Below, piece by piece: positions 3,447 through 50,100 of a stretch of DNA of 64,000 nucleotides. The notes under the pieces are model-generated. The model was not told the origin of the DNA. It did not search any database and worked only from the letters and a program-made list of their open reading frames with translations. Each line of letters starts with the position of its first letter. Within the stretch, counting starts at the first letter, position 1. A program made the position numbers and the translations under genes. The DNA comes from Agarophyton chilense (taxonomy: Eukaryota; Rhodophyta; Florideophyceae; Gracilariales; Gracilariaceae): contig JARGXX010000022.1 in NCBI GenBank assembly GCA_030374765.1, forward strand, positions 1,550,001 to 1,614,000, in the 5' to 3' direction.

Positions 3447-3451
3447 TTTTC
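3447..3451. repeat. Target-site duplication TTTTC of solo LTR D
   Basis: The five bases immediately before TGTGG are identical to 4367-4371, directly after the terminal CTACA. Confidence 0.85.
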
Positions 3452-7241: not shown

Positions 7242-8125
7242 TGTAGGACAACGCTTGGAGCGGAGACACCCCGAAGATGTTCGGGATCTTCCTCTCTTGA
7301 GAGACACGCCTCACGCGGAGGAGATGCGTCCCAGCGGAGCACAGAAACAGAGCCACTCTGGAAAGGCACGACGGAGTCGGGTGTAAGACCGAGGCCAATC
7401 CGGCGGAATATACCTAGAGTGTTTAGGTGAGCACGGCACAGTCCGGGGTGTGACCAATCCTAGGCGGAGCAGTATCACGGTGATTGTATGAAAAGGAGCG
7501 AGAAGACACTTGTATGAGGTGGACGAGCGGGGTGAGTGAGGCGGCCACTCACGAGAGCCAAAAAGGAGAACAAGAGGAAGCGGGGGCGAAACCCTATACA
7601 GGGGCGAGACTACGACAAGTGTCGGCGATTAAATATGAACCCACGGTAGTGGTAGCACTCTGGTTGACAGAGGGGTGGATGAACTAACGTGCCACGGGCG
7701 CTCACGCAGTATGTGGTGAACACGCGCCGAAGGCGAAAAGTTCAGAGCCAAGACTCCCTCCTTGGTCTCCCAAGAGGGTGTTTACTGGGGAGCAGTGCTC
7801 AACCTCCTAAGTAGTGTGGCGCACGGCCCCTGACAGTGAGCGCGCGCCCGAAAAAAGACACTTAATAGCAATAGCGTAGCTAAATAAATACTAAAAATTA
7901 CTAATTAATACTAACCATTAGGTACAATACGGGCCACGTGTGGCACGCCTCGCACTCGAGCGTCGGCATCCGTGCAGTCCACGTCTTCCACCAGTGTGCA
8001 ATTCCGGTCCTAACCGGCCGTCAGCACGCAATAGCGGTATAGCTTTTCATAGCCCAAGCTATTCCTCAAGCAAGCGAAACCTCTAAGTCCTGCGAAGAAA
8101 CCCCCTTGAAGGCCATTGTCGTTCA
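7242..8125 (-). repeat. 3' LTR of element B (884 bp)
   Basis: Begins TGTAGGACAACG and ends TCGTTCA on the plus strand. It matches 17476-18359 over its full length with scattered substitutions. It is the 3' LTR because the polypurine tract abuts it at 8126 and the PBS abuts the other copy. Confidence 0.93.
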
Positions 8126-8138
8126 TATCCCCCTCTTT
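8126..8138 (-). promoter_or_regulatory. Polypurine tract, element B
   Basis: Read on the minus strand this is AAAGAGGGGGATA, immediately before the 3' LTR. It is the expected primer for plus-strand DNA synthesis. Elements A and C have closely similar tracts that also end in TA. Confidence 0.75.
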
Positions 8139-8160
8139 AGGTGACGAACACGCCATCGAC

Positions 8161-10029
8161 ATGGCGGGGAGGCAACGGTCCAACCGGCATAAGAACGAGC
8201 CGCGTAACGCGGCCAGCGACCACTCGACTGTCGAAGGCAGAGCTGCACAACCGAACGACAAACGCACCAACGCGGTACCCACTCCTCGAACTTCGAGCGC
8301 TCTTCCGCATCGTACGCCAACTTCCCGCGACCACATCCCGATACCTCGGCGACCAGTACTCCCGATGAACGGTGGTAACAATCCCCGCCGGGGTTACTTC
8401 TCCGGTTTCCATTCGGCTCCCCTACCGCGGGGGACTGCCTCGTCAACCGCGCCGAGCCGATCCCGGGGTCCCGTTGAATCTTCAAGCCACATCACTCCTG
8501 CCGAGGACACCTGGCACAGTTACGACGAACTCGTCGGGTTAAACGTGCGTCAACATGCGGCGATTCTCCGGAGAGCTCCGTGGTTCAATCCGACAGCGGT
8601 CTTCGACGAAGAACTCGTGGCCGCGTATGCTGATGGCAATGCGCGTCTCCCGGGCGAGCTGTCGGCTTTGATCACCACTTCGTGGGACTGGCGACGCCGT
8701 CTGGCGGTTCTCAATCACGCGATTCTGCGGCGAAGGCGCGAGTCGGCGGAAGAGGCGCATTGTACATTCGTCCGCATCGGTTACTCACGGATCAGCCGGG
8801 CAATCTTCCAATACCCCATCCCCGACGAAGTCGGCTTCGACCTATGGATGTACCAGACTCAGGGTGAGATCGGCTATTGTGACCGCCTTGCGGCGTTGGA
8901 AACTTACGCATGGCGCGGTCAACCGCGAGCGCGTCAAGAAGCGATCTGCTGGGTCCGTCAGATCATTCGTGCCGAGTTCCGTCACCTTTGTCATGAGTCC
9001 CGATATCGGTGGTTACAGAACTTCATCCGCGAGGAGCGTCGGGGCAGATCCCGTTTTGGGTTCCTTGTCCCTTATCAAAACACGTAGATAAACCGGATTA
9101 GTCCATTCTATCAGTTCGGGTGATACGTCTCCCTGCCCGGGTGGTGGTCATCCTTCGAGGTGTGCCGGGGATGTTACGTGGAGTTGCCTCCAGTCGTCTC
9201 CTATCTGGGCTCGTACCTCATCTAGGATCCGCACTCCGGCTTATGGTCCGTGTTCCTAACCGAATGGTCAATCCGCGCCGCAGCGTACATCTTGTGGGAA
9301 GCCTACGACCAGTATTGACTGTGGTATCTTCCTCGGCGTTTGCGTGGTTACATCCGGCAGCTGGACCTTCAACTCCCTCTTGGAGGTGTCAATAACTCTG
9401 ATGAAGCTCAGGAGCTCATCGACATCACTGGGCATGTCGACTGGGCTGTCGTGCCTGTCCAGCAGAGCGGCCGTGGTCAAGAAGCCGGTGGGGCTGATCG
9501 GTCTCCGGGGCGTCGCACGCCGTTGGCGGGATATTTCATCTTCTTTAACCCACGGGAGCAGCAAAAGATCTCCGAGGCGAAGGCGTCGGCACTCCGGATG
9601 GCTCCGTGAGGCATACCATACGGGCACCCCGTGGGGTTTGTCAACTCGGATGACTTCTACTACGTCTATGGCGGTGATGATCTCCCGGAGGAATAGGGCG
9701 AGTACCGTGGCGACGAGCTCATGGAAGACGTTGGAGATCCCGATGGTGCCGATACTACGGCGCAGCCGGCGCAGGGAGCGATTCACGCAGGTGCGGTCAT
9801 CGATCCAGTGGCGGCGGCGTTGCCGGACGAACCGGAAGTTATCGAGGTTCCCATGCGCCCAGAGGCGGTCGTGATCTCCCAGTTCCTTCGAGGTGTTAGA
9901 CTGAACGCGCAGGCGGCGAGCGGCGGCATCGGTGCGATGAGAGACGCCCTCGTTGCACGCCTGACCGGCGGGAGTAACTCCGCTAGCGACTCGGTTGGCG
10001 CGCACCGCAATCCGGGTTCTTCCAACTAA
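8161..10029 (+). pseudogene. Antisense ORF (asORF) of element B, conserved protein of unknown function
   Basis: One continuous frame of 623 codons runs opposite to gag-pol, from just inside the 3' LTR towards the end of pol. It is broken only by six in-frame stops (9085, 9121, 9223, 9316, 9607, 9694), and alignment to the element C protein continues through four of them. The N-terminal 130 residues are Pro/Ser/Arg-rich. Conserved blocks follow in order: RRAPWFNP, IIRAEF, RSRFGFLVPYQ, an LPP..SYLGS block, DPHSGLW, LWEAYD, and DW..VP..QS with SPGR. The tail is acidic, then Ala-rich. The first ATG (8116) lies in the LTR, and the ATG at 8161 is the first one clear of it. I recognise no known domain. 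Extra ORFs next to the 3' LTR, some antisense, are known in plant Tat/Grande elements, and HTLV-1 makes HBZ from its antisense strand. No homology to these is claimed. Confidence 0.82.
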
Positions 10030-10241: not shown

Positions 10242-13200
10242 TTATCCCACTTGGGATCCGTCTATGGTATCCGGCGAAGCTGTGATAGTACGACAATGAT
10301 ACTGTACCACCTTTGACCGAGGTAGATGCTCTATCGGTTCGTCTGAATCCCATTCGGGGCCGTACCCGTACCAACGGACCAAGTATTGGATATACCCCTC
10401 TGGGTGGTAGGAATGCTCCAGAATGCGTCCGACCACGAACTTTTGTCGGTACACTTCCCGGCCATCCCGTATGAAGGTGTCGCTATTTCCGGGTGGTACC
10501 CGTTCTGAGCCAGGAGGTAGCGAAATGTTCACGCCTTGGGCAGCTTCGCTCCGGTCGGACCGTGTAGCGAGCGAGGCAGTCCTCGGCTGAGTGAAATGTC
10601 GACCCGACTTCGGCGGTTCATTTTCCCCAAGTGCCGGGCTTGTTTTGGCGCTTCCCACTCCGGTTGGAGGTCCCACACCAGCGGGTAACCCGGGTGGTCG
10701 TTCCGCTAATCGGCGTGGTGAAGCTCGCTTCGGCGGTGAGATTCGCTGGAACGGTGGCGCATTGTCGCACATCTCTGTCCCACGGCGAGGTTCCGTGTAG
10801 TCACGCGAGCGTTCCAATGGCTGGCTGTCCGGTGTCGGCGCCGTGGATGTATCCGCCTCCCTGTGCGGGGTACTTGGCGGTGCGTCGTCCACTCTTACTG
10901 TATCAGGCTGCGGTGTGTCGAGCGCATTTGCATTCCGTGTTGCACGTGTGGTGCCACCTCGGCAAGTGTTGGTGGCGTAATCCGCAGCTGTGGTCTGAGG
11001 CTTGGATAGCGACTGCGTCGAGTCTTGCAGGACGTCGGTATCAGGCACCCCTGATGGGCGAAGAATGACACGCGACGGTGCGGCGTTTCCAGCGACGGCA
11101 TCGACCGGATTACGACTGCTGTCGGGCGCCTCCCCCTCCTTACGCGATGCACCGGAGTTGGTGTCCGTCGGGTGGACTGGGGAGGAGCGACGAATGCGCG
11201 ACACGATTCCTTGCGGGTTGGGCGCCGCGGGTAGCGGAAGGTCAGACAAACCCCAAGATGGGTGTGGTAACGCGTAGGGACGTGGGTGGACCTGGGGTAA
11301 GGGGGTCGATGTATCCGTTTCAACGGGAGCAGTCACACCAGTAGGTTGGGATGTTAACGGCGGAGGAGACGATACCACGCGATCGCGAGAGATACGTTCG
11401 TGATTACCAGCAAGGTCAACAACGAAAGTGTCGGGAGCCACCGAAATAACCCGAAAGGGGCCGTCGGCAACGGGTGACAGCTTGTGGCGTTTCTCCTTCT
11501 CTGGGTTCCAATTCTCCTTGCGGATGAATACATAACCGTCGGGGGCGAGACGTGGCGGCGAGCGAGGGGCTTTGGTATCAAATTCACGCTTGTAAGCGGC
11601 CTGGGCTAGGTCCATTGAACGCCGTGCGGCGGGAACGAGCTTCGTGAGCCAAGTTTTCCACGCTTCGCGGTAAGCAGTCGGTGACGGAAAGGTATCCAGC
11701 GTGGGCTGTGGTTCCAGCGCCACGGGCGGTGGGGTACGGGACAGTACCAACTCGAAGGGCGTTAATCCAGTTGTCCTGTGCCCCTGCGTATTATACGCAA
11801 AGGTGAGCGCATCAGTTACCGAGTCCCAATCTTTGGCGTGGTCTGCAACGTATGAACGAAGTGTCGCAAGTAATGTCCGGTTGAACCGTTCGGCCTGCCC
11901 ATTAGTTTGGGGGTAGTAAGTGGTCGTGAACAGGTTCTTAATGTCCAAGATGTGACACACATCCTCGAAGAAAGGAGAGGCGAACTGTCTCCCGTTAGCG
12001 GAGAGGAGGTTGACCGGTGGGCCGTAGACGAAGACCCAGTGTAGGACGAAGGCTTGAGCCACGTTCATAGCGGAGATCTTCCGTAACGGTACGGTCCGGA
12101 CCAGCTTTGAGAAGCGATCCGTAATTACGAGTCAGAACTTGTAATTCCGCATAGTGGTAAGGAAGGGACCGAGTATATCAATGGCCACAAACTCCAATGG
12201 AGCGCGAGCTGGAAACAGCTTCAACTTCGTCGCATGACGGCGGAGTTTGACACAGTTCCGAGCGCAATCGGTACAAAACCGCACCGTTGCGTAGCAGTCC
12301 ACTGCCATGGCAGGCCAGTAGAAGTTACGGCGTAGGGAGAGATTAATTTTCCGTCCCCCGACGTGGCCACTCAGTTTGGAGTAGTGCGATATCTGCAATA
12401 CTCTCGACTGGAGGTTATGTGGTACCACGATTTGTGGGTGCGATCCGACGGTCCGTACAAGGTATCCGGCGTCATTCACCTGAAAGGGGAGAGTACCTCC
12501 TCCATTGAGTTGAGCGCGGACCTTCGCGCAGAACAGGTCATCGAATTGCTCCCGTATCATCTCCTCTGGAGTAATAGGCACGAAGTTCCCTGGTAAGGGT
12601 TTCTCGGAATCTTCCGAGAGAAGAAAGTCGTCCAATTCGGAACCGGAATCTGAAGAGTCCGTGTCTCGTTTCTCGTCCTCGATGGTAGCGTCGTGGCCAT
12701 TCACTGCAAACCAGGGTATTTGATCGTATTTGACGGGTAGTGCTTCGCCAGTAGTGACCAGGCGGGAGAGAGCATCGGCTTGGGTGTTGCACAATCCTTT
12801 TCGGTACTGCACGTCAAAGTCAAATTCCGCTAGACGGAGACGCCGATGCATCAAGCGGCCTGAAGGCTCGGAGATGGAGAGTAGCCATCGAAGTGATGCG
12901 TGGTCCGTAAAAACTGTGAAATGCTTACGCATGAGATAGGGGCGCAACATTTGTAATGCCCATACTACTGCATGGCATTCCTTCTCCGAGACGGAGTAAT
13001 TTTTCTCGTCGACCTTTAGCGATCGAAACCAGTTCCCTACGGGGCGTCTTTCCCCATTGGGTGCAGTTTGAAACAGTGCACAACCTACTTGGTAGTCGCT
13101 GGCGTCCGTATCTACGGTGAAGGGCCTTCCAGGCTTGGGCAACGAGAGGATCGGGGCGGAGACGACAGAATCCTTAAGAGAGTTGAAAGATTCCGTTTGA

Positions 13201-15053
13201 ACGGGGGTGAAGGGGTCCAGTTTTGGTGGTTGGCCTTTCAGCAAAAGCGCGATGAACGGTGCAGCCTTGTACGCAAAAAGCGGGATGAATCGTCGGTAGA
13301 CGTTCGCGAGTCCCAGAAAGGAACGAAGCTCGGTTTGTGTCCGCGGTTCTTTAGCCTCTTTGAGTGACTTAACACGAGTCTCCTCGATTGTAACACGTCC
13401 TGGAGGGATAACATGGCCGAGATACTTCACGTTGTTTATGAAGAAGTCACATTTCTTCAGCTTAAGAGTGACACCCGCATCTCGTGGCGTGGTCATTATA
13501 TCCCTCACTTGAGTGAGATGTTTGTCGAGATTATCTGAGAAGACGATTATGTCATCCAGGTAGACCAGGCAGGTACGACATTTGAAGCGGGCCAATAGGA
13601 TGTCGATGGCTCGCTGGAAAGTAGCGGGGGCGTTGGTAAGACCAAAAGGCATCTGTTTGAAACGGTAGAGACCGAAGTGACACACGAAAGCGGTTTTATC
13701 CTGGTCTTGCTTCCTTACTGGAACTTGCCAGTATCCCCAATTGGCGTCCAGGGTTGTAAAGACCGTGGGGGTGCCCAGCGAGTCAATGTAGTAGTCCATT
13801 CCTGGGATTGGATACACGTCCTTGACGATAACGGTATTCAACCAACGGAAGTCGACGCAAAACCTCCAGGAACCATCCTGCTCTGGAGCCAGTACTACTG
13901 GAGAAGCCCACGGCGACTGAGCCGTTTTAATGACTCCTGCTCGAAGCATTTTATCCACTTTTGCCTTTTCCTCCGCGCGTGCGGCGGGTCCGGCACGGTA
14001 TGGGTGCTGAGAGATGGGTCGGGTGTCCGGTAGCAAATCAATCCGGTGTTCCGTAGTGGCAATCTCACCAAGGGAGCCGTCCCACATAGTGGTGAAGTCC
14101 CTTAAAAGTTCTTACAATCGATGGCGGTATGACTCCGGGACGTGGTTGAGATCCAGGTCCTCGAGTTCTTGGACTGGATCGGGCCGGTCACCACTCATTG
14201 AAAAGGGCTGCGTCCCTGATGTTACAGGTTGAACCCCGGGCACCGGTGATGAAACGGGTTCTGGGCTGTTCCCTTCCTTAGATTGAACGAGTCCGTGAAC
14301 TTCAGCGGCGGTCAGCTTTGTCGGCACCATAGCGATGGGGTGCGGCATGACGGACCCTATCACTTGGTTCTTCACCAGATACTGGGGTACATTCCCTAGA
14401 TTGGCGATCAGCACGTGAAACTGTTGGTTTGGCTCCACATGGACGATTCCATTCGCAATTGCGAGGCTGTGCCTGTCATACAGTGACGGCAATGGTTGTA
14501 AGACCCGGAGTCCGTGGCGACGGGAGGCTACTTTCACCATCATTTGGGACTCAGGCGGGACGCAAAACGACGCTGCGACGCGGAGCTTACTAGATTCACA
14601 GTTATCCGGTCCAGGTTCCTGTGCTGCCGGTAGCGGGACAGGCTTCTTCGTGGCACGCCTAAGCGGACGACGAACGATCGGAGTGGACGATCCATCCTCC
14701 ATCTCGACACGCCGTTGGCGGGGGAAGATCGCTTCGACGAAGCGGTCGCAAAAGTCGCAACCCAAGATTACTGGGGCGGCTAATTTCAGACATAGGACGA
14801 AGTCGAGTTTCACCACGCGAGCGCCAACGCGGACTACCAGTTATATGAACCCCACCGTATCCAACGGTTTGTTGTTCGCGTCCGGGACCTCCAAGACGTG
14901 GTCGCGACGGATCCTAGGCTGCAAAGCAGGCGGTAATACTTCCTCCACGACAAAGTTCGGGCCGGCACCGGTGTCTCAGACGGTAAGGTGGCGCACCATA
15001 AACTGGGGTGAAAGGTCAAGGTCGGCATAGACCTTGTACTTTCTCTTAGCCAT
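10242..15053 (-). pseudogene. pol of element B: protease, RT, RNase H, integrase, chromodomain
   Basis: A single frame of 1604 codons starts at ATG 15053 (MAKRKYKVYADL, alignable with element C). In-frame stops lie at 14976 (just before the protease DTGAGPNF), 14841, 14112 and 12132. RT has TTLDANWGYWQ and YLDD, both intact. RNase H has TVDTDASDYQVG. Integrase has an HHCC-type finger with FCTDC. Its catalytic core has ..AIDILG, but the second Asp is replaced (LLSANG instead of the usual SDNG), and NGQAERFN supplies the Glu. A chromodomain near 10300-10445 has YLVRWYGY, with the usual DTWEP as DSDEP. The normal role is reverse transcription and integration. This copy cannot do either. Confidence 0.93.
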
Positions 15054-15135
15054 CACCAGAACTCTATCCAGAAACTGGTTATGGGAAACACGATTCTACG
15101 GACGACGCAGAACACTAAATTGTTCCGAGTTCACC

Positions 15136-17310
15136 TCATTGACGGCCTCTTTCCTTGAAAGGATTTTGACCAGGGAGCGAGGCTTGGACGCCTCGTGCGC
15201 CGTCGATCTCGACTCTGAGGGCTCCCCTCCTTGAGAGGAGACTCCCAAATTTAGTTTTCTGGGCCTGCTCCGCCGGAGTCGGCTGCTCAGAACGTTGAGC
15301 AGGCAACGCCGAGGCGTCAGGTCCAGAAGTTTCCGTAGAAGCCGTGGGGTGGCCGACCACGTCGGTGACACGGGAATCCGGTGCAGGTACGACCCGAGCT
15401 CGGGGAAGCGATACGTGACGTGGAACATCCATTCGAGCATGGATATATGATGCAATCGGGACAGCTGCTTTGTCCTCCGGGGATAGGGCCTCTTAATTGA
15501 CTACGACTTGTGCCCATTCTCGGAGAGACAACATACATTGTGGAGAAGTGTGGCCTGGTTTGTAGCAGAGATGACAAATCAGGCCAGGAACCGGCGTTGG
15601 GTGGTGAGGCTCGGCGAACTTCACCGCGGGGCGGGTATCTCTCCAACCAGGACGCGAAAAGCGGACATTACCACTCTCGTGTGGGACGCGTGGCGCACGT
15701 ACGCGACCATTATCCGCATAGAGTAGCGTGTCATCCTCAATCACGTATTGTGACTCGTCCAAGGTTGAGGGTAACTCCATTGTAGGGATGGAATGAGCGT
15801 CGCTATGGGCTAGCTGCACGTTATCATAATCCCTTCGAGAGGCCTGTTCGTCGATCATCGAAGCTGACGCGGTACCCAGTTGTAACATCAACGCTTTTGC
15901 GGACCTAACCCTAGAGCCAGGAGTGCGGGCGCGCAGGGCTTCACCTTCTGCACGGGCGAACTGCACTAGTTCCAAATACGTGGTTTTAGGTCTATCTTCT
16001 CGACGTCGAGCAACAAGAGTCCGGATCGCCGGATCCAAACCATCGACAAACATGGTGCAACGCTCTTCAGCGGGGTATACATTTCCACAGCGGTGGAAGA
16101 CCTTGCTAAGGCGCGACGAATAATCGGTTTCCGACTCGACTGGACGTTGGCGAGTGTCCCGCACGGCGCGTATAGCCTGCTGAATGGCGGAATTAGTAGC
16201 ATATGACTTCAGGAGGTATTGAACTGCTTCAGGCCAGCATGTGACCCCTCCTTCGGAGGCGCTTGATGAACCTCTGACAGAGTGATACTGGTCTTCTGCA
16301 AGCACACGTAAAAAGTACGGGAAGGCAATGTAGGCCTGTCCCTCGTTCATTCAAAGGATGTCAGCTTCCGCGACAAATCGTGCCAAGAAATCCAACACCA
16401 ATATTGGGTCTTTTCCAGAAAACAACTGGTTTCGAAGTGAGCGCTACATTCGCCTAATGCAGTCCTTCACTCTTCCCGTACCACGGGGTGTACGATCCAA
16501 AGAGGAGTCCTCCAAACGGTATTACTGGTATGATAAGAGCTTCTTAAAGAGCGAATTGGTCGGTTTCAGCTCCTTCAAACCTGTGTGCTTTCTTCCCTTC
16601 GTGCGGGCGCGGATCACCCCATATGTGGCTGTTGACCGCTTAGAGCGTGAGGAACGCTCACGGCGAGCTACTTCCACCGATGAATCGGAAGAGTCGGACT
16701 TCGAGGATGAGGAATCCGACGGTTCGGGATTCGTGTTCCTTCGCTTCTTTTGAGCCTGGCGGTTCTCCTCCTTATTTTCTTTGTGGGATACTGCAAACGG
16801 CTCGGCCGGATAATCCCCCGACATTAGGGTTTGTTCCAATGTCTCAAGACGGCTTCAGATGCGCGAGAACGTGTCTGCGACGTTCTTGACAAAGGCCGAG
16901 GTTCCACCAAGGGACTCTAAAATCGAGTTCACATCCGCATGGAGGACACGGAGGTCCTCAGAAAAATCCTGCGTAGCAGTGTCATTTACCTTCTTGCAAA
17001 GGAAGTCAAACTCCTCTGCAAGGATGACTTGAGCTTCCCGCATAGAGCGGAGTTGCTCTTCCACAGCTGCAAAGCTGGGATGGAGAGTGACATCCCTAGC
17101 AAGGGAGAGCATCTGGGCGGCGGCAGACGCCGGTCCTGCTGCAATTGCTGGAGCTGTCGAATCAGAGACAGGGGGTCTCGAGGTCTTTCCACCTGGCACG
17201 CCAGTCGATCCACCGGTATGAGACCGTGAACGGACCGGAATACGCGATGGTTGCGAGGGTTCCGGTGCACCCGTTTGACTCCGCGCCCTCGGACGGTCTT
17301 TGGGCGACAT
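15136..17310 (-). pseudogene. gag of element B
   Basis: The 725-codon frame starts MSPKDRPRARSQ. It has a disordered Ser/Pro-rich N-terminus, a coiled-coil-like segment, a charged Arg/Ser/Asp linker, a capsid-like region (WPEAVQYLLKSYAT, then RCGNVYPAEE) and one zinc knuckle, CHLCYKPGHTSPQC (C-x2-C-x4-H-x4-C). In-frame stops lie at 16855, 16522, about 16456, 16351 and 15493. At 15493 the frame continues with sequence alignable to element C (EALS), so gag extends to 15136. About 80 nt then separate it from the pol ATG, in a different frame. Confidence 0.88.
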
Positions 17311-17454
17311 GAGATCAGATTCCGTTAAACGTGAGTATCCAAACCCGATCGGCTAGTGGGGCCAAGAAACTTCCTCAAAGAAGGCAACTGAGATCAACCT
17401 CAATTTGTGAATCCTCTTTCCGATTAATCGTGACTAAGTGTGCCCGACTCAACC

Positions 17455-17475: not shown

Positions 17476-18359
17476 TGTAGGACAACGCTTGGAGCGGAGA
17501 CACCAGGAAGATGTTCGGGATCTTCTTCTCTTGAGAGACACGCCTCAAGCGGAGGAGACGCGTCCCAGTGGAGCACAGAAACAGAGCCACTCTGGAAAGG
17601 CACGACGGAGTCGGGTGTAAGACCGAGGCCAATCCGGCGGGATATACCTAGAGTGTTTAGGTGAGCACGGCACAGTCCGCGGTGTGACCAATCCTAGGCG
17701 GAGCGGTATCATGGCGATTGTATGAAAAGGAGCGAGGAGACACTTGTATGAGGTGGACGAGCGGGGTGAGTGAGGCGGCCACTCACGAGAGCAAAAAAGG
17801 AGAACAAGAGAAAACGGGGGCGAAACCCTATACATGGGCGAGACTACGACAATCGTCGGCGATTAAATATGAACCCACGGTGGTGGTAGCACTCTGGTTG
17901 ACAGAGGGGTGGATGAACTTACGTGCCACGGGCACTCACGCAGTATGTGGTGAACACGCGCCGAAGGCGAAAAGTTCAGAGCCAAGACTCCCTCCTTAGT
18001 CTCCCAAGAGGGTGTTTACTGGGGAGCAGTGCTCAACCTCCTAAGTAGTGTGGCGCGCGGCCCCTGACAGTGGGCGTGTGCCCGAAAAAAGACACTAAAT
18101 AGCAATAGCGTAGCTAAATAAATACTAAAAATTACTAATTAATACTAACCATTAGGTACAATCCGGGCCACGTGTGGCACGCCTCGCACTCGAGCTTCGG
18201 CATCCGTGCAGTCCACGTCTTCCACCAGTGTGCAATTCCGGTCCTAACCGGCCGTCAGCACGCAATAGTGGTATAGCTTGTCATAGCCCAAGCTATTCCT
18301 CAAGCGAGCGAAACCTCTAAGTCCTGCGAAGAAACCCCCTTGAAGGCCATTGTCCTTCA
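17476..18359 (-). repeat. 5' LTR of element B (884 bp)
   Basis: This is the partner of 7242-8125. Its inner edge abuts the PBS, which fixes the element's orientation as minus. It should hold the element promoter. An AT-rich tract at 18115-18165 (AAATAAATACTAAAAATTAC) is the only clearly AT-rich part. Confidence 0.93.
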
Positions 18360-18364
18360 ATATC

Positions 18365-19103
18365 TGGCACAACTAACCTCTTGGATGCTAAAGATCGTCA
18401 GCTCCTCAGGTCATACCCTCAGTTTGTTCATTATCTCTTGAAAACTTACGCCACGGATGACGTTGTAATGGATGCCCACCAGAAAGTCATCTTCTTTAGG
18501 CAGAGCTCCAACATGACCGAATCGGCTTTTGCAGACGGCCTATGGAAGAAGGCATACCGATGTGGAAACGTGTTCTCCGAAAAATGGCTTAAACGTCACT
18601 TCATCACGAGATTTCTCCCTGCCATTCGGACACATGTGCGCAATTATCACAAGGAAAACCCGCAATACTCCTTCCGAAGGCTCGATACCTACGCCGAGGG
18701 TTATGGAAAAACCTACAGGACCTCCAGGTGCAACGCTAATATAACCAGAGGACACGCAACTCCAATGATTAAACCCAACCAAGCCCAATTGGTTGGCTCC
18801 ACGGAGTCGGACATGGATGCATCGCTCCATAACGGCGATTCGGGAGATGTCCTCGCAATAAATTTCAGTGCTCCTACGTCCGGGACCCCATCATATACCT
18901 CTCAGGGAACTACAGCCACCACTGGAGCACACATACCCAAATATTCTCCCCTTCCGCCCAGCAAGGACTTTTTTGTTCGCTCTCCAAGGGTTCGCTTCCT
19001 CTGCCTTCTCGTGACCCAACCTTTTGACTGTATCACGTATCTGCCTGACGGCGCACGTAAACACCTCCTAGCACTAAGGGAGGAGAATTACCGGGTGCGG
19101 TGA
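18365..19103 (+). pseudogene. gag of element A, 3' part (capsid region)
   Basis: This continues the frame of 7066-7241 across the B insertion. The capsid-like segment (YPQFVHYLLKTYATDD, then YRCGNVFSEKWLK) aligns with gag of B and C. Two Cys residues remain near residue 210 of this part but the zinc knuckle is not intact. The frame stops at 19103. Downstream Pro/Glu-rich sequence to about 19290 is probably the former gag C-terminus. Confidence 0.8.
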
Positions 19104-19339
19104 TCCAAGGGAATGTATAACAGGGTACAGAAACGAACCACAGGGACCCCTCGAAGCTCACCCTATGCCACGCTTCCGGATACTCCGATCAAAGCCCCAC
19201 AGGTCCACGCTATTGTAGATCCTGCGGACGGCCCCGTGGAAGAACCCTATCCTCAGGAAGAAACGGAAACCCCATCGGAAAACTCCTAGAGAGACGACTG
19301 GAGGCAAATCCTCCCTCTTTAAGCCCCTGACTCAACGAA

Positions 19340-22300
19340 TTGGACGGTCATGAGCCAAAGAGCTTCTCACCTCTTAATCCAAACCACCCACAATGGACCA
19401 CTCAAGATGAACCACTATTGGGACACAGTAACGACCCCGTCTGTATCCTCTGGAAAGAGAACTATACAGTTCGAGTAACCGTAGGACTTCGTTCCAGCAA
19501 CTCTCGAGTGGCAACAGATGTATTGGACACAGGCGCTGGTCCCAACTTGGACCCTCCTAAGCTGCTCCCACTGGGTTGGCAAGAATTCGATCAGGAAAGG
19601 AAGATCCCAAGGATTACCGATGCCTCTCGTAGACCAATGGGAATTAAAGGGATAGTGCCACTGTATCTCCAGGTAGGACAATTCAAAGTTCGCACGTGGT
19701 TCCTTGCATGTCCTAACTTGGGTGCTTAGGCAATCCTAGGGACCTCTTTTATCGATCTATACATTAAGGCTATTTATCCAGGCCTTAGGAAAGTCACGTT
19801 CTACCGCGCACCTTCCATCTCCATAACTGGTTCTGCCTCTTGTAGCTTCTTGCCCTGGCCAAAAGCTAACCGCAAACGAGCGCTTGTCTCCGAAAACATG
19901 AAGTCCAATAAGGTTCGCGTTTCAAAGGCCATAACGATACCCCCGATGACCCAAATTACTGTATCGGACCATTCCCAGTCCTCAGGTCTTGTAATGATTC
20001 AGAATCACCCGAAAACGGTTCTGAAGCACCTTACCTTGATGGCCAATGGATTAATGGACATCCACCCCAACAGGTACTTCTTGGTCACAATCAGCAACTT
20101 CCAAGATGAACCCGTGGGGTTACCTAAAGGTACATGATTGGCATCACTCCACCCGCGCGCGTGGCCATTATGGAGGCCCAAAAGGATAACCTTGCGACGC
20201 CAACTCCCGACGTGGAAGTCGACTCTTGGGGAGAGGACGGTCGCCATCAGCCCAGAATTCGGATCCTATAGGCCCCGGGTACTTGATCTCCTCAGGGAAT
20301 ACCAGGCCATATGGTCGGGTAGATTGGGCAAAATCAGAGCCACTACACACCGCATTGACCTTCAGGATGATGCTAGACCACAGTTCCAGCACCCATACCG
20401 CACCGGCCTTGAAGTTAGGGAAATTTTCACCGACAAAATGGACGAGATGCGCAAAGCTCAAGTTAGCGAGCCGGGATCTCCAAACCAATCCGAATGGGCA
20501 ATTCTCCCTGTCCTCGTGGCGAAAAAAGCTCGTGGCGAAGAAAGATGGCTCAGTCAGGTTCTGTGTCGACTATATGAAGCTGAACGCAGTAACCGAGAGG
20601 GACTCATACCCAATACCCCGGATGGACGACTGTCTGGATTCCTTAGGCGAAGCTGTCTTAATTACCACACTGGAAGCTAACTCGGGATACTGGCAAATCC
20701 CTTTCGCCGAAGACGCGAGAGCGCTGACCACCTTTACCACCCATGAAGTTCTGTTCAGATTTACTCGCATGCCCTTTGGTTTGAAGATTGCACCAGCCAC
20801 GTTCCAACGGGTAATGGATATTATACGGTCCACAGTCAAATGAAAGTTCGCCCTGGTCAATTTGGATGACGTTATAATCTTCTCACGGACCGTAAAGGAA
20901 CACCTTCGCCACGTGAAGAAGGTGCTAACAATCCTACAGGACGCTGTAGTAACCCTGAAACTCTGCGAATGCGCTTTCTTCCAGGCCTTGGTGGACTATC
21001 TCGGTCACGTCGTCCTCCCAGGAAAGCTAAAGGTGGCCACACGGACCCTAAATGCGAATCGCCAGGCTAAGCTTCCTAGGACCCACACGGAAATACGATC
21101 CTTCGTGGACCTGTGGGACGTTTACCGACGGTTTGTTCAAGGGGTTTCCAAGATCTCGGCCCCTCTCAACTCGATGCTGAAGAAGGGAACACCTTTGGAG
21201 CTCGAAGCTTTTACCGACGACCAGTACGAGGCATTTCAGACCCTCATGGGCAAATTGCTGAACCCACCCATATTGGCTTTACCAAAGCCCAAGAGGCCTT
21301 TCGTCCTGTACACAGATGCCTCTGATGTCCAAGTGGCTTATGCACTGCTATAGGAACAGGAGTCACCGAAGGACAATCGACCGATTAGGTACTGGAGCAT
21401 AACGCTCACCAGCGCGGAGCGTAACTATAGTACGATCGAAAAAGAATGTCTAGCCATCGTATGGTCCGTATTGACACTTCGTCCATACCTCGACGGAACC
21501 AGGTTTACCATTAGCACAGCCAATGACTCACTCCGCTGGTTACTGAATATGACCGATGCATCGCGTTGCCTCTCTAGTTGGCGCCTCAGGCTGTCTGAAT
21601 ATGACTACGAGATAACCTATAGGCCATGCATCAGGCACCAGGCACCAGATGCCCTCTCGCAAATCATTACCGACGGAACTGACGATACTCCATTGGATGA
21701 CCTAATTCCTACCCCCTTTACAGACGATGGACGACAGGACTATACGGAAACGCATAAACGTATGGGTAAGGTGCAATTGGAGGATCCTAAAGTAAAGGAG
21801 ATCGAAGTATACCTATTTAACTGGGAGACAGTACCGCCCAATTCGGCACCACCTCAGGTTAGTGTGATAGCCCCCGAGGAAAAAGAACTCCTCCCTATAA
21901 CTATTGAGGAGCTCCTATAGGCGCAGGTCGAGAAAGAGTACTGCATGGAAACAGCTCAATTGGTAGGAACCCCAGGATGCCTGTTCGACTATGACTGATT
22001 TGGACTACTATGTCGCCGCTCACCGCTGGATGGCGCACTCCAACGGGTAATACCAACTTCGCTAAGGGCGTGATTCCTGTACCTCGCCCATTTCCCCCGC
22101 TTGGCTGGTCACTCTGGAGGCCGACGAATATACCAGACCCTAAGGAAGTTCTTCTACTGGCCACTAATGGCACAGGACTTATGGCAAACCACACGGAACT
22201 GTGCATCGTGGGCACAGATATGAGGGTCTCGCGCCAACCATCAGGCCAAACTGAAGCTCTTCTCCGCCGCAGGTCCAATGGAATTTGTCGCAATGGATAT

Positions 22301-23695
22301 ACTTGGGCCTTGGCCTAAGTCGTCCCATGGGAAACGATTTGTTTTGGTTATAACCGATAGGTTTACCAAACTTACCCGAGCCCTACCCCTAGAAAAGACA
22401 ACGCCCACGGATGTGGCCACGGCCGTTTTTCCAACTGGGTATATCCATATAGCATGCCACTCTACCTTTTTACGGAGAACGGCAGCCAGTTGGTATCCAA
22501 ATACTTCTCCCATGTCTGTGCTACCTTAGGTATCAAACATGTGACCACCACGGCGTACCACCCGCTAACGAATGGCCAAGCCGAACGCTTCAATCGCCCC
22601 ATTCTGGACCGATTGGCGCACTACATTTCGGAGCACCAATTGGACTGGGACGACTACGTTTCGGAGCACCAATTGGACTGGGACGACAACGTTGAGCCAC
22701 TGGTTTATGCTTACAACACGCAGGTACACGCTTCCACGGGGACAACACCGTTTGACTTAACGCTAACGAGAGCGCCGCCGTCGATAGCTGTTCACCTTCA
22801 GGAATCGATCATATTCCAGGACATAACCGAAGGAATGTTTCCTACCCAGGCGAAGAGCTACTCGCGCCGACGCATTGACCGCATTCTCCAATCGGCCAGA
22901 ACTGGACTAACCAAAGCCCAACGGCGCTACAAGATCAATTTCGACAATGCCGTTTGGAACACACCGACCTTTGGGAAGGGAGACCTGGTTTACCTGGACC
23001 GCCCACCGAAGGGCAGTAAAGAACTCGAGGACACTACGCGGAAGCTCTTACCCCGCTCTACGGGACCATATGAAGTCCTTAACACCAATGAACACACCAT
23101 CACGTTGCTAAATGACGGCCCACAGGACACCGTGTCTATTGAACGCGTGACACGAGCTCCCAGTTCCTCCAGACCACCAAAGTCCCAACCTCATGGCCCA
23201 ACGGAAGCACTACGACCTCAGGTCGACGCTCAAGTCTCCAAACCCCCTAAGGCAGTTCCTGAGGACTCGACTAGCCCCACGGACACGATGGTCAATGCCA
23301 ACTACTCTGACCCATCTCTGCCAACCGACTCCGATGGATTCGACCCTCTGGATCACACTCTCCTTCCGGAGAATGAACACCAACCAAAATATGAGATTGA
23401 GAGCATCATCTCCGCCAGTCGTGGAAAAGATGGAACTATGCGCTATCGCGTCCGTTGGTTCGGCTACACACCTGAGGAAGACACTTGGAAAGAGCTTCAA
23501 ACCATCCCCGCTGGTTTTATCGCCCGCTATTGGCGCAGTTTCAGCCACACGGAGCGCGGCTTTCAGGAGGGGGCAACCATTGGTCCTTATGATCCCGAAA
23601 CGCCTCCCAAAACGCCTCCCGACACGACGGTTCGCAGCAGCACGACGGTTCGTCGAAGCTCCCACATCAAGGAACAAGGTCAGTCCTTGGGCTAG
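19340..23695 (+). pseudogene. pol of element A: protease, RT, RNase H, integrase, chromodomain
   Basis: The protease motif VLDTGAGPNL lies near 19530. RT begins at about 20300. A 16-bp tandem duplication near 20510-20545 shifts the frame. RT motif A reads TTLEANSGYWQ (Glu where the catalytic Asp is expected) and motif C reads VNLDD. RNase H follows at 21300-21660, then integrase, with stops at 21918 and later and a frameshift near 22450. Its core has AMDILGPW, FTENG (Glu for the second Asp) and NGQAERFN. An in-frame 33-bp tandem duplication lies at about 22625-22695. The chromodomain at about 23390-23545 is well kept (YRVRWFGY, DTWKEL). The protein is inactive. Confidence 0.92.
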
Positions 23696-23875: not shown

Positions 23876-26054
23876 TCACGAGGGCGGCACAGGAGTAACT
23901 CCGTCGTCTTCATTGGAACCTGGAGGAGCAAAGCCGGGACCAGGGTCACCCGAGAAGCCACCTGGATCACCGGAACCGGCCCCAGCGAGCCGAACATGCT
24001 TCTTAGGCAGGGATTCACCTGAGGAACTATTGCCACCATCCGAAGCCTCTCGGTCACTCAAATGTAGACCATACTGGGTATCCAAGTCGGCAGTAACTCT
24101 CTGGAGCATCGCCTGCGCATTCTGCTGCAGGAGATAGACCATAGCGGTTTTTGGATCCTGATCTTGTTGGACAACCGCGGCGTAGCGCGCCAAGCGACGC
24201 GCCGAAAAGCAGGCTTCCCTTACGACTGTCGCAACGCCAATGGAGGCCGTAACACCAACGGTACGGCAAACATGACGGAGATCCGAAGCCGCAGCCGTGA
24301 CCGAAGCGGGAAAGTGTAGCAACGGAGAGGATGGAGCGATGTCGACGCCCCCAGTGGACGTTTGAGCCAGAGCATCGCCTACAAGACTTCCGGCCTTGAC
24401 AGTAACCTTTCCAGGAGGGATGTCTACCTGGGCGACGGGCGGCTCATAAGAAAGCTCATCCTGAGGAGTAGCGCCCGGAAGAGCCAGAGGAGGAGAAGCG
24501 GTCGGCAACACAACAGCGGACTCGACCGGAGGGTGAACGCCTTCCACTGCTAGGACGAAGGGATTTTCACCGAAGAATTCCCCGTCCGAAATACCAGCAG
24601 GAACCAACGGCGTGGCTTTCACATCAGGGTCGAGGCACAGGGGTTCGTAACCAATGGCCTTCGGATAAAAGTCGGGCACATGACGCCTCGGAATGTCCGA
24701 TGGTTGATTCCTCAAAGGCTTGGCTGGGCAGGCACGAGCGTCGTCCCGACTCTGCGGATGCATCGGAATCGGCGTGAATGAGTTTGTATCCCAGTCATAC
24801 CAAAGGAACCCAGGATTCTTGCCCCACTCCACCTGTAGGACATGATCCAAAAAGCGCCTTGGTCTTTTCGACACCGAACTGGGTCCCACGGACGATATTC
24901 GGAATGCCCAGGTTCCTTAGGAAACGGGTCATGATGTTCAGGAGTGGGATTAGGCAACCTGGAGGACCAGGTAGGTTCTCATTGTACGATACCCTCCAAT
25001 CCTCCGAACGGACATTATCACGGATTCCGTACATTACGGTATCCAGAAAGGCCATAAGAAACATCAAGCCGAACTCAACGATAAGTAACAGCCAGGACAG
25101 CCACGACCTTCGGTAATTGTCATCGCCCATGAGTAGTGACGAGTGGTACGCCACCACAGACGGCGTGGGAACGAGAAGACGCGGCGAGATACGATTATAT
25201 ATGGACCATGGGTTCTCATCCTCGTGCGGAAGCGAGAGGTACAACGGAAGGCATTTGTCGGCGCTCATGTCGTGAAACTTCACTTGGTGCCAACAAAAGA
25301 AGAACCCCAGGGATTGACGCAGACGACCATCGGGCTCGTGTATCTCGTTCCATTACACTCGGTTGGACATCCAGAATTAGCGGTCGTACGTTGGCCTGAA
25401 GCACATAAGCGCCAAGAGATTGTGACCAGCCGGAGGAAAGCGCACATGAGGCGAGATGAAACCAGTGTATAGATCCGAGAGGAGTTTGTTCACCCTGACC
25501 TTGTATTCGGCTCCCTTCCCGCAGCGGACGTATGGCATGTCCGCTTGGATGAGGGCGCGACATCGCGTCGCCAAACCCAGATCTATAGGACAATGCAACT
25601 ATTGATTATACCAAGAGACGCTGCGCGCGTTCTTGCTGCGCCTCCGGAAATCGGTTATCTTGGCAAACCTTAGGGCGTCGAGATACACTTGATAAAGCCG
25701 TTGGTATTCTTCCACAGAGGACGGGAGAGTGGCATGACGCACTGCCGACGGATTCCGTCCGATGGCATGATGAAAGCGGTCCCCGGGACGTTCGTAAGCC
25801 ACTTGTTATCCCGAGGAGCTCCCCTCTTGGTTGTTCGAAGCCATGGTGCCGCTGCCCACAGGCTGATCCGCCCGGAAGTGGATAGGACGACCGGCGGAAG
25901 CGACAAAGACCGGAGGGAGAACGGCATATCCGACGGGCTTATAAGACGAGTTCGGCATCACGCGCGACCAATGGAAACGTACCACGATGGGAAGGCGAGG
26001 TGACGAAATCGACCCGGACGGACTGACAGGCGTGAACCACGGTGGACGAACCAC
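23876..26054 (-). pseudogene. Antisense ORF (asORF) of element A
   Basis: The minus-strand frame starts close to the 3' LTR and runs towards the end of pol. It carries stops (25806, 25599, 25377 and two more before 25330) and one frameshift near 24800-24890, after which it stays open to 23876. It aligns in order with the element C asORF: a W-S/A block (PWSIYNRISP), a Pro-x-x-x-x-Tyr block, a W......EF......FL.A..D block (about 25020-25090) and GFLWYDWDTNSFT against DFVWYDPWTRQLIT. The C-terminal 250 residues are Ala/Pro/Gly-rich. The protein is far diverged from B and C, which argues for long maintenance. Function unknown. Confidence 0.7.
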
Positions 26055-44302: not shown

Positions 44303-45018
44303 TGTAGTATCCGCTTTAACGGAGAGAGCAGACACCTGTGACAGCGTTCGGACTGCCGATGGGTCGCTTGCGGCGAAGGAAAAGGGGTGGTAGAGCTACA
44401 ACACTACCGAGCTGGAAGTGGGGTGTAAGGCCACTACTCGCCAGCGAGGGTGAACAGTGAAACGGTAAAACGTTGATGGAACGTAGGTACGAGACGGCTC
44501 GTGAAGTGGGTCGGGGCTGACTATCTTTTATAACTCGTCCGGATCTCCGGTTAAGGAATTCTAAGCGAGGAACAGAATAGTCATGATGCCCATGTTGTCT
44601 CCTTTTCTTGGAGTCGGCGCTCATCTCTGGTACACTATATACTGTGTACCAGGGTGAGTGCCCAAATAAATACATAAAAAATACCCAATGGTCAGCCACT
44701 TAGCCAAACCACTGTATGGGTATGGTCCCTAATGGACGTCTAGCTACAGAGGGTAGTAAAGCCCTCCACGTGGATCGCCACTACATGCGCCGTTGCCAAT
44801 ATGGCATTCCTCTAGGAAGGGTCGCAACTATGCGCGCGCCGTGGTAAACCACTTGACCCATGACGCCACGTGTTCCACAAAGACATTCTGCCTCTAGGCA
44901 TACAATGCGGGATGCCGCTTCATATCACAATGCTGATGATAACACTCACTTATGAGTTCCAACTGCGACTTCGCGACAAACCAACCTATCGGATTCCCCA
45001 ACATAGTAGCATACTACA
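44303..45018 (-). repeat. 3' LTR of element C (716 bp)
   Basis: Begins TGTAGTATCCGC and ends ATACTACA on the plus strand. It matches 54340-55055 at the same length with scattered substitutions. The polypurine tract follows directly. Confidence 0.92.
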
Positions 45019-45042: not shown

Positions 45043-46876
45043 ATGGGGGACGCAAGAAGCGCTTGCACACAGTCGGGCCAGTGTTCCGGGTACTCATCTT
45101 CATCACGAATTCCTCGCCGCCCGACCAACTTTTACAGTTCTCAACAGCATTCTGTTCCTCACCGCTCTTCAGCTCGATCTCTCGCGATGGGTCCGAACGC
45201 CGGCTCCAACCCGTTTCAGCACTCCTCTGAGGATGTGCCTTCTGGGGCTCCGTCCAACACTGCTGGTTATGCGTCGCAGCCTACTGCTGAACTCGGTCCA
45301 TACCGTTCGTTCCTTACACCGTACACCGTTTTCCGGTCGGTACCGTTCCCTCAGCCCACCGTGGCTCCGATGCCGAACGCGGCTTACGTCACCTCTGCGG
45401 GTGTGATTCGAGCTCCTTCCCGTCGTGCTCAGCGGAGCTACCCGCACCCTGTGGATTTCTATGGACGAGATCCTCTCGACTCTCGACAACGTTGAACTTT
45501 TCGCGCAAGCGCCCTGGTTTGATCCAGTTTCTATCCGCAATGACGCGTTGATACAACAGTATGTACACAGTGGGTACTTCCTTGACTGTATTCTGGAACA
45601 AGCGATTAATAGCGACGACTGGGCGAGCCATATTGCTTTGTCAGACAACGCGATTGCGCGATATTCAACTGAAACCTTGTCCGAAGCCCGTACGCGGTTC
45701 ACCAAGCTGATTTATCAGCGTCTTCACCGATTCATCAGTACGGTCCTCCTCCCGCCGGACTGGTAACTAGATACCTGGAAAGCCCGTACCGACGGTGAAG
45801 GTTACTCGTATATCGAGACACTCGTTGAAGTCGATGTTAGCGGTTGGCGCGGTGTGCGCAGTGTGCGTGATGCAGGTCTCTGCTTTCAGCAACCTATTCT
45901 CCGTGCGGAGTTCCGCTTCCTTCGAAAGCGTGACATTCCCTATTGGGATTATCCCCGTTGGGAACGTCGTACTCGATCACGTTTGGGCTATTTGGTGCCG
46001 TATCAAGTGTTCGAGATTGGCCGCATCCGGCGGAACGTGCGCTTTGGGGGCAACATCGGTATTCTGGAGCAGTGGGCGGCGATCGAGAGTCCTCGTGGTT
46101 ACCCTGTAAAGCTCCCACCGGCGATCTCCTACACCGGGTCCGCGTTGGTTAACGACCCGTTCTCGGGATATTGGAAGGTGGTTTATACAGAGTTTATCGC
46201 CAAGATGGCCGTCTTTTTCCTGTGGGATGCTTATGATACCTTTAGAGTTTGGTACATGTCGCCCACAGCGCGAAAGTATGTAAGAGAACTCGATCGTTCC
46301 CTTGTCCTGGGATCCCGTGCGAACCATGCCAACTTCCTCCATCTTGTGGATTTGATCGACAGTGTCGATTGGTCTGGGGTGCCAGCTGATCAATCCGCTC
46401 GCAGAACCCGTGCGAGACACCACGACCATTCTCCGGGACGAAAAGCACGTGCTGGAGATTTCGTTTGGTACGACCCCTGGACGCGCCAGTTGATCACCTC
46501 CGAGCAGGCTCGCTCTCTTCGGGAGTACCCGCATGACATGCCACCGAACCAGCTTACTGGATACGTGTACGATGCTACTCCATCCGAGAACAGAGAGGAA
46601 CCGTATGAGGAAGCGCCGGGAGCTGAGGCTGAACTCGGTTACGAGGACGAGCCAGAGCTGGCAGGCGTAGCGACTTCCGTCGATAAATCCGCAGCGGCCG
46701 GAGTTGCTCAAGAGAACTGCCATTGGTTTACCCGACAACCGAGTGAAGTGCCCGTCGAAGATCCAGGCTTGGATCCGCTGAGACAGTTCCTCTTAGATGC
46801 GGGCTTTCTTGTGGACCAGGGTGAGGGTGATCGCGCACAGCTTCTTGCGAACCTGCGTGCTCGCACGTCTCTTTGA
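45043..46876 (+). pseudogene. Antisense ORF (asORF) of element C
   Basis: About 610 codons run opposite to gag-pol, from just inside the 3' LTR. The Ser/Pro-rich N-terminus (45043 to about 45440) is in one frame. A single shift leads into the conserved part: AQAPWFDP, ILRAEFRFL, RSRLGYLVPYQ, KLPPAISYTGSALVNDPFSG, FFLWDAYDTF, DWSGVPADQSARR, SPGRKARAGDFVWYDPW. An acidic tail and a short Leu-rich end follow. One in-frame TAA (45764) replaces a Glu codon that is intact (GAA) in the copy at 62.7 kb. Collinear blocks are shared with the asORFs of A and B. No known domain was recognised. Confidence 0.85.
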
Positions 46877-47177: not shown

Positions 47178-50100
47178 TTAGAAATGGGATGTGCCCATGA
47201 GCCCGACTATCGAGGAGTCGATCTCTCTGGGGAGTGGTAATCGCATGCGTCGATGATATCGCACGAGTTGCGAACGGGGGACATGAGCTATAGGTTCCCA
47301 CGTATCCGCTTCCGGAGGAAAACCGTACCAACGGACTCCATACAATAATTCTCTAGTATCTTCATGCTCGCCATGTTCATATTTGCGATCCATAACATAT
47401 TCTTGGGCGTTTCCCAATGCTTTCGCTGTTGGCGCAAGACTCCTGTTAACAGGTTTGAAATGCCTTAGGGCTGACCCAAGCGTCTCTGGGTTAGCAGTCT
47501 CAGCGTCGCTAAGCGTTCGCTCGTCGACTAATTGTCGTTCTGCCCGCAGGGGCAGTGTAATCATTCCTTGAGAACCTTTCTCAGATAAAGAGCTATCCTG
47601 TTTTCCAGGTTCCATAGAAGCGTACTTCTCGCTACTTCTCAATTCCATTCGTGGATGACCTTCCTTCGGTTTATCCGATTCTGACCGCTGTTCGGTGGAC
47701 GATGGTGCTTGCACCACGACAGGAGGCGATACCTCTTCTTCTTTCTGCCCACGAGGGATGGGAGCCGATATCGGCGGAACAGCGAGTGGCGCTTCACCTG
47801 ACGGTTCAGCCTGAAGCGGTAACGGCGCGTTTTCGCGTGCACTCGTTTCCAAGTCCTTGGGGCCAAAGTCCAAAACATCTTTCCTGATTTCAGGTTCCAT
47901 TTCTGTACTTACGGGTGTGCACGTTCCACGGGGCATATCCCGATACTTCGGAAGCTGTCTGTGATTGGCGTACGCAACCGCCGTCGATGGGATATCAGGA
48001 GCTTTCTCCTCTGCTCGAGCCATTGGTGGCGGTTCAATTTCCCCAGAGTCACTTGGGCTTTTGCCTTGACATTCCGTCGCAATTCTCTCCTTAGTTCTAC
48101 CAGATACCTGGACTTCCACTTGCGGGTCAGGCGCGACTTCAACGCGATCGCGCGATACACGTTCAACGTCCTCACCTGTCTTGATGACCACTGTGTCTTC
48201 ATTAAGTTCCACCACTTTGAAGGGTCCAGCCGCTATCGGCAACAACTTATGACGAGATTCTTCCTGTTTGTCAGGTCTTTCGACTCGCACGAAGACGTGA
48301 CCTCCTACTCGGATTGCCGGATTTCCTCTTCGCCTTCTGGCGTCATAGTTTCGCTTATAGCGAGCTTATGTCTTCGATATCTCTTTAGCGGCTTCTTCCG
48401 CTCTGGCCTTCAGGTCATTACTCCATTTCAGATGGTACTTAGCCGGGGGCGGCGCGTCCAATTCGGTCTCGTCGTCGAGCGCAACCGGTAAAGCCGGAGG
48501 GTTACGTGAGAGCACGAGTTCGAACGGTGCCGTCTTTGTAGAGGTATGAACTTGCGTGTTGCACGCGTAGCACAGAGTATCTGTAAACATGTCCCATTCT
48601 TTCGGGTGGTCCGCGATGTAGTGTCGTAATGCTGTTATCATCGAGCCGTTGAAACGCTCCACCTGACCGTTGCATTGCGGATGATAGGTCATGGTAAACA
48701 CGTTTCGAATGCCCAAAATGCGGCAAACATTCTGAAAGATCTTCGCAACGAATTGCTTCCCATTATCTGATAACAGAACTTCTGGTGGTCCGTATATAAA
48801 TAACCAGTGTTTGATAAACGCCTGTGCGATTACGGCTGCAGTTATCCGCTTCAGCGGCACAGTCCGCACTAGCTTCGAGAAGCGGTCGGTGATTACCAAT
48901 AGGTAGCGATAACCTCGCCTTGAGCGAATCATTTCCCCTAGGGTGTCGATACTGACGTATTGTAAAGGCGCTTTCGCCTGGAATAACGTCATCGGTTTCC
49001 GCTTCCTGTAAAGCTTCACGCGATTCTTCGCACATGTTGTACACAACCTCACTGTAGCATTGCAGTCCATTGCCAAAGTAGGCCAGTAAAAATCTCTTCT
49101 TAGAGTCATGAACAACTTCGTTCCTCCTGGATGACCAGACAGCCTGCCGTAGTGTGCCAGATGGAGTACTCGACTCTTCAAGACGTGTGGAATCACGATA
49201 TGATCATGCTTTTCGACATGTCTTAACAGTATTCCTCGTGAATCGAGTGAAAAGGGGAGCTCCTCCCCCCCGTTAAGACGAGAGCGTATCGACGCACAAA
49301 ACGTATCGGCGTGTTGCTCATGGAGGAGCTCACTGCACGAGATTCGCTCGAGTTGAACTGAAGGGTCAGTGTCTGCTAATGCAAGGAACGGGTCTGCATC
49401 TGAATATTCATCAAGGGTCTCTTGTTCCTCTTCTTCAAAAGATGGTGAATGGGTCTCCATGGAGAAGCAAGGTATCTCTTCATCGATTTCGCCTTGGGTT
49501 TCGCCCAGTGTTTTTAGTCGCGATAGCGCGTCAGCTTGGACATTGGCCAATTCCTTCTTAAACTTCACTTCGAAATCGAATTCAGAAAGGCGTAAGCGCC
49601 ATCGTGTGAAACGACCAGACGGGTCTGTAATGGACAGCAACCATCGTAGAGACGAATGATCCGTGTTGACGTTAAAACGTTCTCCTTGGAGATACGGTCG
49701 CAATGTGGTTAGAGCCCAAACGACTGCAAGGCATTTCTTTTCTGAAACTGAATATTTCTTCTCAGCTGCGTTCAGCAATCTTGACCAGTGACCAATGGGT
49801 TTGAGTTCACCATCAAAGTGTGTTTGAAAAAGGGCACACCCTACTTGGTACTCGCTAGAGTCGGTACCCACTGAGTATGGCAGGTTGGGGATGGGCAGCG
49901 CCAAGACTGGGGCTGTAATAATCTTTGTCTTCAGCTTGTCGAACGCTTCCGCTTCAGCTTGTCTGAATTGTTCCAGCTCTACTGGTTGTCCTTTATGCAG
50001 CTTTGCGTTGAGCGGTGCCGCTATATGCGAGTATCGCGGCACGAATCGTCGGTAGACGTTGCACAAGCCGAGGAAAGAACGCAATTGCTTATGTGTCGAC

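What the first reader, a model, noticed from the sequence alone, without database searches (positions are those of the whole stretch)
8161..10029. Conserved antisense ORF in chromovirus family B, homologous to ORFs in two other families
Seen: a 623-codon frame opposite to pol, located between pol and the 3' LTR. Six stops lie in it, yet similarity to the family C protein continues in the same frame through four of them, so it was a real protein before decay. Known: plant Tat-lineage elements carry extra ORFs here, some antisense, and HTLV-1 makes HBZ from its antisense strand. Inferred: this lineage carries a distinct antisense gene of unknown function.
Basis: partly seen in the sequence, partly recalled or inferred. 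Interest (0 to 1): 0.9.

Follow-up and report, generated by a model that had tools for sequence, protein, structure and literature searches.

The report
Antisense gene in red-algal retrotransposons
Jumping genetic elements in a farmed red seaweed carry an extra, long-conserved gene written backwards against their other genes; its protein resembles none of known function, and it offers a new setting in which to ask why retroelements keep such backward genes.

Summary
Confirmed. At 8161-10029 (+) lies a 623-codon frame, opposite to pol, between pol and the 3' LTR of a chromodomain LTR element, broken by six stops. The stops are nearly all private to this copy (five in 0 of 31 other copies, one in 1 of 30); 3 of 35 readable copies are open throughout. 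A profile of 11 proteins, none from this genome, matches the pieces across four stops, in one frame and in order. Family C carries the same gene; family A a distant relative (hhalign E 4.9e-15, control 0.49). The host is the red alga Agarophyton chilense. Of 15 integrase loci sampled without regard to the ORF, 11 have a relative downstream, 11 of 11 antisense. Between families B and D codon positions 1/2/3 differ at 220/198/354 sites, and this is the only stop-free frame of six. No Pfam, PDB or fold match. Best reading: a real accessory gene, read from an antisense transcript starting in or beside the 3' LTR, probably regulatory. Expression and function are not shown. Antisense ORFs in this place are a known kind (Grande, Retand); I found no description of this family.

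The parts
8161..10029 (+). antisense ORF (asORF), family B copy, six internal stops
7242..8129 (-). 3' LTR of family B
   Evidence: 96.2% identical to 17476-18364
17476..18364 (-). 5' LTR of family B
8129..8138 (-). probable polypurine tract of family B (pyrimidine run on the + strand), between LTR edge and asORF start
   Evidence: read by eye; not tested
10242..12131 (-). pol of family B: end of integrase and chromodomain
   Evidence: Chromo E 2.4e-5, 24.6 bits, just under the cut-off of 25.1
12132..14087 (-). pol of family B: RT, RNase H, integrase zinc finger
15493..16350 (-). gag-like frame of family B
   Evidence: weak zinc knuckle only, E 0.029, below cut-off
45187..46876 (+). asORF of family C (second ATG; the first, 45043, is in 15 of 20 copies, the second in 20 of 20); window copy frame-shifted before 45767
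44303..45018 (-). 3' LTR of family C
   Evidence: 95% identical to 54340-55055
54340..55055 (-). 5' LTR of family C
47178..51485 (-). pol of family C, RT to chromodomain, in two frames (48366-51485, 47178-48365)
   Evidence: Pfam; Chromo 27.4 bits, over the cut-off
52733..53713 (-). gag of family C
   Evidence: Retrotrans_gag 28.1 bits, over the cut-off
62671..63582 (+). fragment of a second family C asORF copy
   Evidence: 96.8% identical to 45664-46409 over 746 bases; profile E 1.1e-127
18321..23695 (+). decayed pol of family A with RT and chromodomain
23876..25352 (-). asORF of family A (two overlapping open pieces, 23876-24916 and 24795-25352)

Best explanation
Shown: a protein-coding accessory gene lies antisense between pol and the 3' LTR in several families of chromodomain LTR retrotransposons of Agarophyton chilense, and was kept at the amino-acid level as the families diverged. 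Its protein is predicted to have disordered ends, a mostly helical core (about residues 20-400 of P0011) and a small C-terminal helix-loop-helix. Inferred: it is translated from a short antisense mRNA that starts in or beside the U3 part of the 3' LTR (start codon 31 bases from the LTR edge in family B, 168 in family C if 45187 is used), ends in the spacer before the convergent pol frame, and makes a protein that acts in trans, most likely in the nucleus, on the element's nucleic acid or expression, as proposed for Grande gene23 and described for HBZ. The confidence below is for the gene; for the nuclear regulatory role I would say 0.45.
For: Five of six window stops in 0 of 31 other copies, one in 1 of 30; start codon in 34 of 35; 3 of 35 copies open. 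Profile without own-genome sequences matches in frame across four stops. B-D mismatches by codon position 220/198/354, all 1830 aligned bases in phase; highest amino-acid identity of six frames in four of four comparisons. 11 of 15 sampled integrase loci carry a relative, 11 of 11 antisense. 41 of 43 ORF-bearing loci have pol on the opposite strand, 2 show no pol. Homologues in database proteins incl. Gracilariopsis chorda. For a nuclear role, weakly: a KKRAR motif near the end of family A copies, an RG-rich end in P0027, Ish1/HeH-like hits at C-termini, all below cut-off.
Against: Within family B selection is barely visible (0.72), and two C copies (36/37/31) and two A copies (56/55/67) show no third-position excess. 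No transcript or protein was seen. No antisense TATA box in either family B LTR; family C inconclusive. NLS-like motifs in only 3 of 9 proteins scanned. 4 of 15 integrase loci lack a detectable relative. No fold or domain match supports any function.
Confidence: 0.88

Rival explanations
1. The functional product is the antisense RNA (silencing or self-limiting double-stranded RNA with the genomic RNA); the protein is secondary.
For: Antisense transcripts without coding capacity are known in other elements, and both roles may act together (PMC7264820, passages).
Against: Codon-position pattern and frame conservation between families; homologous proteins at 35-40% identity. RNA action alone would not keep a reading frame.
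Confidence: 0.08
2. An env-like or other structural protein for entry or cell-to-cell movement.
For: It lies between pol and the 3' LTR, where env lies; A_L077 has one hydrophobic stretch of 1.82 (19-residue mean).
Against: It is antisense, whereas env-like ORFs are sense (PMC7264820); maxima are 1.13-1.58 in the other 8 of 9 proteins; in the P0011 model that stretch is a core helix.
Confidence: 0.04
3. A gene captured from the host or from an unknown virus, now kept as the element's passenger or used for another purpose such as integration-site choice or exclusion of rival elements.
For: No relative of known function; presence in at least four types (A, B/D, C, L094-like) is also what an old capture would leave. 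Origin and function are separate questions.
Against: No host single-copy homologue was seen in the three protein searches, though hosts are poorly covered; no viral relative.
Confidence: 0.3
4. A chance frame, mirrored from coding or base composition on the other strand.
For: The region is about 60% GC, and one minus frame has few stops (6-12 per sequence in family B-D comparisons and B-C, D-C).
Against: It lies outside pol; the other five frames hold 6 to 28 stops per sequence compared and lower identity; homologues elsewhere.
Confidence: 0.01

Closest known systems
Antisense additional ORFs (aORF-3R) of flowering-plant Gypsy elements: maize Grande gene23, rice RIRE2, Silene Retand (PMC7264820, PMC11963269; passages seen)
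   Different: No TRP28 (PF04195) match in 13 of 13 members; red alga, not flowering plant; elements with a chromodomain, whereas Retand is non-chromovirus. Grande and RIRE2 proteins were not compared.
HBZ of HTLV-1 (PMC11963269, PMC7264820; passages)
   Same: Antisense gene at the 3' end of a retroelement, start near the 3' LTR.
   Different: No bZIP or other Pfam match; spliced or LTR-started transcription here unknown; exogenous virus, unrelated sequence.
Boty of Botrytis cinerea (PMC7264820, passage)
   Same: LTR element outside plants with an antisense ORF between pol and 3' LTR.
   Different: Sequence not compared; no relation claimed either way.

Membership tests
Chromovirus (chromodomain Ty3/gypsy element) | chromodomain at the C-terminus of integrase | tested here: met
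   Over the Pfam cut-off in families A (32.5 bits) and C (27.4); B 24.6, just under 25.1
Chromovirus (chromodomain Ty3/gypsy element) | place in the RT tree | not tested
   no RT tree was built
Antisense aORF class (aORF-3R) | ORF between pol and 3' LTR, antisense | tested here: met
Antisense aORF class (aORF-3R) | present in most copies of a family | tested here: inconclusive
   11 of 15 integrase loci across families; copies of one family were collected by the ORF itself, so its share within a family was not measured
Retand TRP28 antisense protein | TRP28 domain (PF04195) | tested here: not met
   none in 13 of 13 members at E <= 1; none in the genome, but that search's controls were silent too
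Retand TRP28 antisense protein | non-chromovirus element | tested here: not met
   chromodomains
HBZ-type antisense regulator | bZIP domain (recalled) | tested here: not met
   no bZIP hit in 13 members
HBZ-type antisense regulator | antisense transcript from the 3' LTR | not testable with these tools
   no RNA data
Env-like protein | sense orientation | tested here: not met
   antisense
Env-like protein | transmembrane segment | tested here: inconclusive
   19-residue hydrophobicity maxima 1.13-1.58 in 8 of 9 proteins, 1.82 in A_L077; no dedicated predictor was run

The most novel reading that the evidence does not exclude
An antisense regulatory gene of its own protein family, possibly of a new fold, is a standing part of the chromoviruses of Gracilariaceae (perhaps of red algae more widely) and arose independently of the plant TRP28 genes and of HBZ, so that an antisense controller beside the 3' LTR is a solution which retroelements reach repeatedly.
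Probability: 0.35. Interest if true: 0.82.

Novelty: new variant of a known kind. Interest (0 to 1): 0.6.

Why it matters
Antisense genes beside the 3' LTR are reported in flowering-plant elements, in fungal Boty and in HTLV viruses; in the LTR retrotransposons their function is unknown (PMC7264820, PMC11963269, passages). A large family in a red alga, with natural open copies, wide diversity (down to about 20% identity) and a well-modelled core, makes it testable whether such genes control their element. It also bears on annotation: seven proteins and seven named only 'unnamed protein product [Agarophyton chilense]' are relatives of these ORFs, and one of them is identical to an element copy.

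Tried and rejected
Within-family dN/dS as the main test: too little shared variation. 40 family B copies were fetched; L004, L044, L052, L053 and L055 were dropped for matching under 1490 bases, then L030, L047 and L057 for long gaps, leaving 32; 703 of 1033 variable sites are single-copy and spread 239/225/239. The same count for family C is partly out of phase, because the window copy differs from the others by a 7-base gap, and was not used.

Full report
WHAT IS THERE. The window lies in an 80 Mb assembly of 135 contigs. A database protein of Agarophyton chilense (P0001) is identical over 502 of 502 residues to L015 and L071, which cover the same place of this assembly, so the host is that red alga or one all but identical (Rhodophyta, Gracilariaceae). 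The published Gracilaria chilensis assembly is 76 Mb in 138 contigs with 66% repeats (PMC10388701, passages). The family B element runs from 7242 to 18364 on the minus strand, with LTRs 96.2% identical, pol with RT, RNase H, integrase and a chromodomain just under the Pfam cut-off, and a 1869-base frame on the plus strand between pol and the 3' LTR. The frame starts 31 bases from the LTR edge and ends 212 bases from the pol stop, so the two converge.

WAS IT A PROTEIN. The window copy has six internal stops. In 31 other comparable copies five of them occur in none; the sixth occurs in 1 of 30. Of 40 copies found by DNA search (209 candidates, 40 scored), 35 were long enough to read and 3 are open over all 622 codons. 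The start codon is in 34 of 35 copies, the terminal stop in 29 of 31; in 22 ungapped copies this frame has a median of 1 stop and the other five have medians of 8 to 26.

SELECTION. Within family B pooled pairwise dN/dS is 0.72 in this frame and 0.80-0.95 in the other five, and single-copy variants are spread evenly over codon positions, the mark of neutral decay after insertion. Between families the signal is clear. Eleven pairs of open copies were aligned as DNA without knowledge of frame. B against D keeps phase at 1830 of 1830 aligned bases with mismatches 220/198/354 by codon position (p 9e-13), and two more B-D pairs give 173/149/295 and 208/174/341. B-C gives 227/231/330 over the 1505 of 1725 bases in phase (p 2e-6), D-C 246/219/347. 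Within families: A 75/64/119 (p 5e-5) and 56/55/67, B 20/35/46, C 36/37/31, D 15/19/22 and 7/11/13, that is, weak or no excess. Of four pairs read in six frames, this frame has the highest amino-acid identity in four, and no stop except one in the B-C pair; the other frames hold 6 to 28 stops per sequence.

HOW WIDESPREAD. Scored matches are lower bounds: 111 for family C (1606 candidates; many rows open over 611 codons), 150 for family A (703 candidates), with open frames of 698 and 748 codons in L076 and L077. Of 43 fetched loci over 3 kb chosen because they hold the ORF, 41 have pol on the opposite strand and 2 show no pol. As a sample not chosen by the ORF I took every tenth of the 150 scored integrase-core hits (2999 candidates; row 32 in place of row 31, the window's own) and read 2.4 kb downstream of each. 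Profiles find a relative in 8 of 15. Three more, L088, L089 and L091, carry opposite-strand pieces 69-86% identical to the L094 frame, which the profiles do match. So 11 of 15, and 11 of 11 antisense. L080, L081, L084 and L093 show none; what they are was not determined. The sample is of the best-scoring 150 of 2999, so it is not a census.

RELATEDNESS. B and D are 51% identical, B and C 36%, C and D 37%. The A-type is beyond BLASTP between the window copies of C and A, but profile-profile comparison gives E 1.3e-7, 1.9e-11 and 4.9e-15 as the A alignment was widened against 0.49 for a pol alignment; L083 and L094 match both profiles in HMMER. Three protein searches gave 14, 7 and 8 proteins; those with a name are Agarophyton chilense and Gracilariopsis chorda. 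A wider range in red algae is likely but not shown.

THE PROTEIN. No Pfam or NCBIfam family over cut-off in 13 members, no PDB sequence relative. In the model of P0011 most 10-residue blocks from 21 to 400 have pLDDT 75-93 (weaker at 181-200, 351-370 and 391-400); it is mostly helical with disordered ends and a C-terminal helix-loop-helix. Foldseek and VIA-align find nothing above chance. The proteins are rich in arginine and often poor in lysine: K/(K+R) 0.02-0.12 in B, C, D, P0007, P0011, P0014 and P0027, 0.19-0.30 in A, P0012, P0015 and P0016, against 0.26-0.47 in five pol pieces and 0.17 and 0.46 in two gag pieces.

MECHANISM. The anatomy fits a separate antisense transcription unit that starts beside the 3' LTR and ends before the convergent pol. 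Published work places the promoter of Grande gene23 upstream of the gene and that of the HTLV antisense gene inside the 3' LTR (PMC7264820, passages). A protein kept through such divergence in the same place presumably serves the element. [quoted passage not shown] No step of this was tested.

VERDICT. The finding stands and is broader than stated: not an oddity of one family but a common gene of this alga's chromodomain elements. The arrangement is a known kind; the searches named in Tried and rejected found no description of this family.

Noticed in passing
asORF proteins, e.g. L041:161-2026, P0014: Striking lack of lysine beside abundant arginine (2 lysines in 622 residues in family B copy L041), not shared by pol of the same elements; not uniform across relatives (P0012 has 4.5% K)..
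   Followed up: partly
window 63424-64000 and 3451-4027: 577 bases 97% identical near the two ends of the window; the copy at 63424 cuts off a family C asORF fragment.
   Followed up: no
window 5386-5830, 26371-26817, 30466-30912: A repeat of about 447 bases in three copies, 81-87% alike, of unknown nature.
   Followed up: no
window 18321-18364: The family B 5' LTR ends where the first family A frame begins, as if B lies in or against A; no LTR pair was found for A.
   Followed up: no
L080, L081, L084, L093: Four sampled integrase loci without an asORF relative in the 2.4 kb read; L081 has a 255-codon opposite-strand frame that by eye looks like the start of another element's pol.
   Followed up: partly
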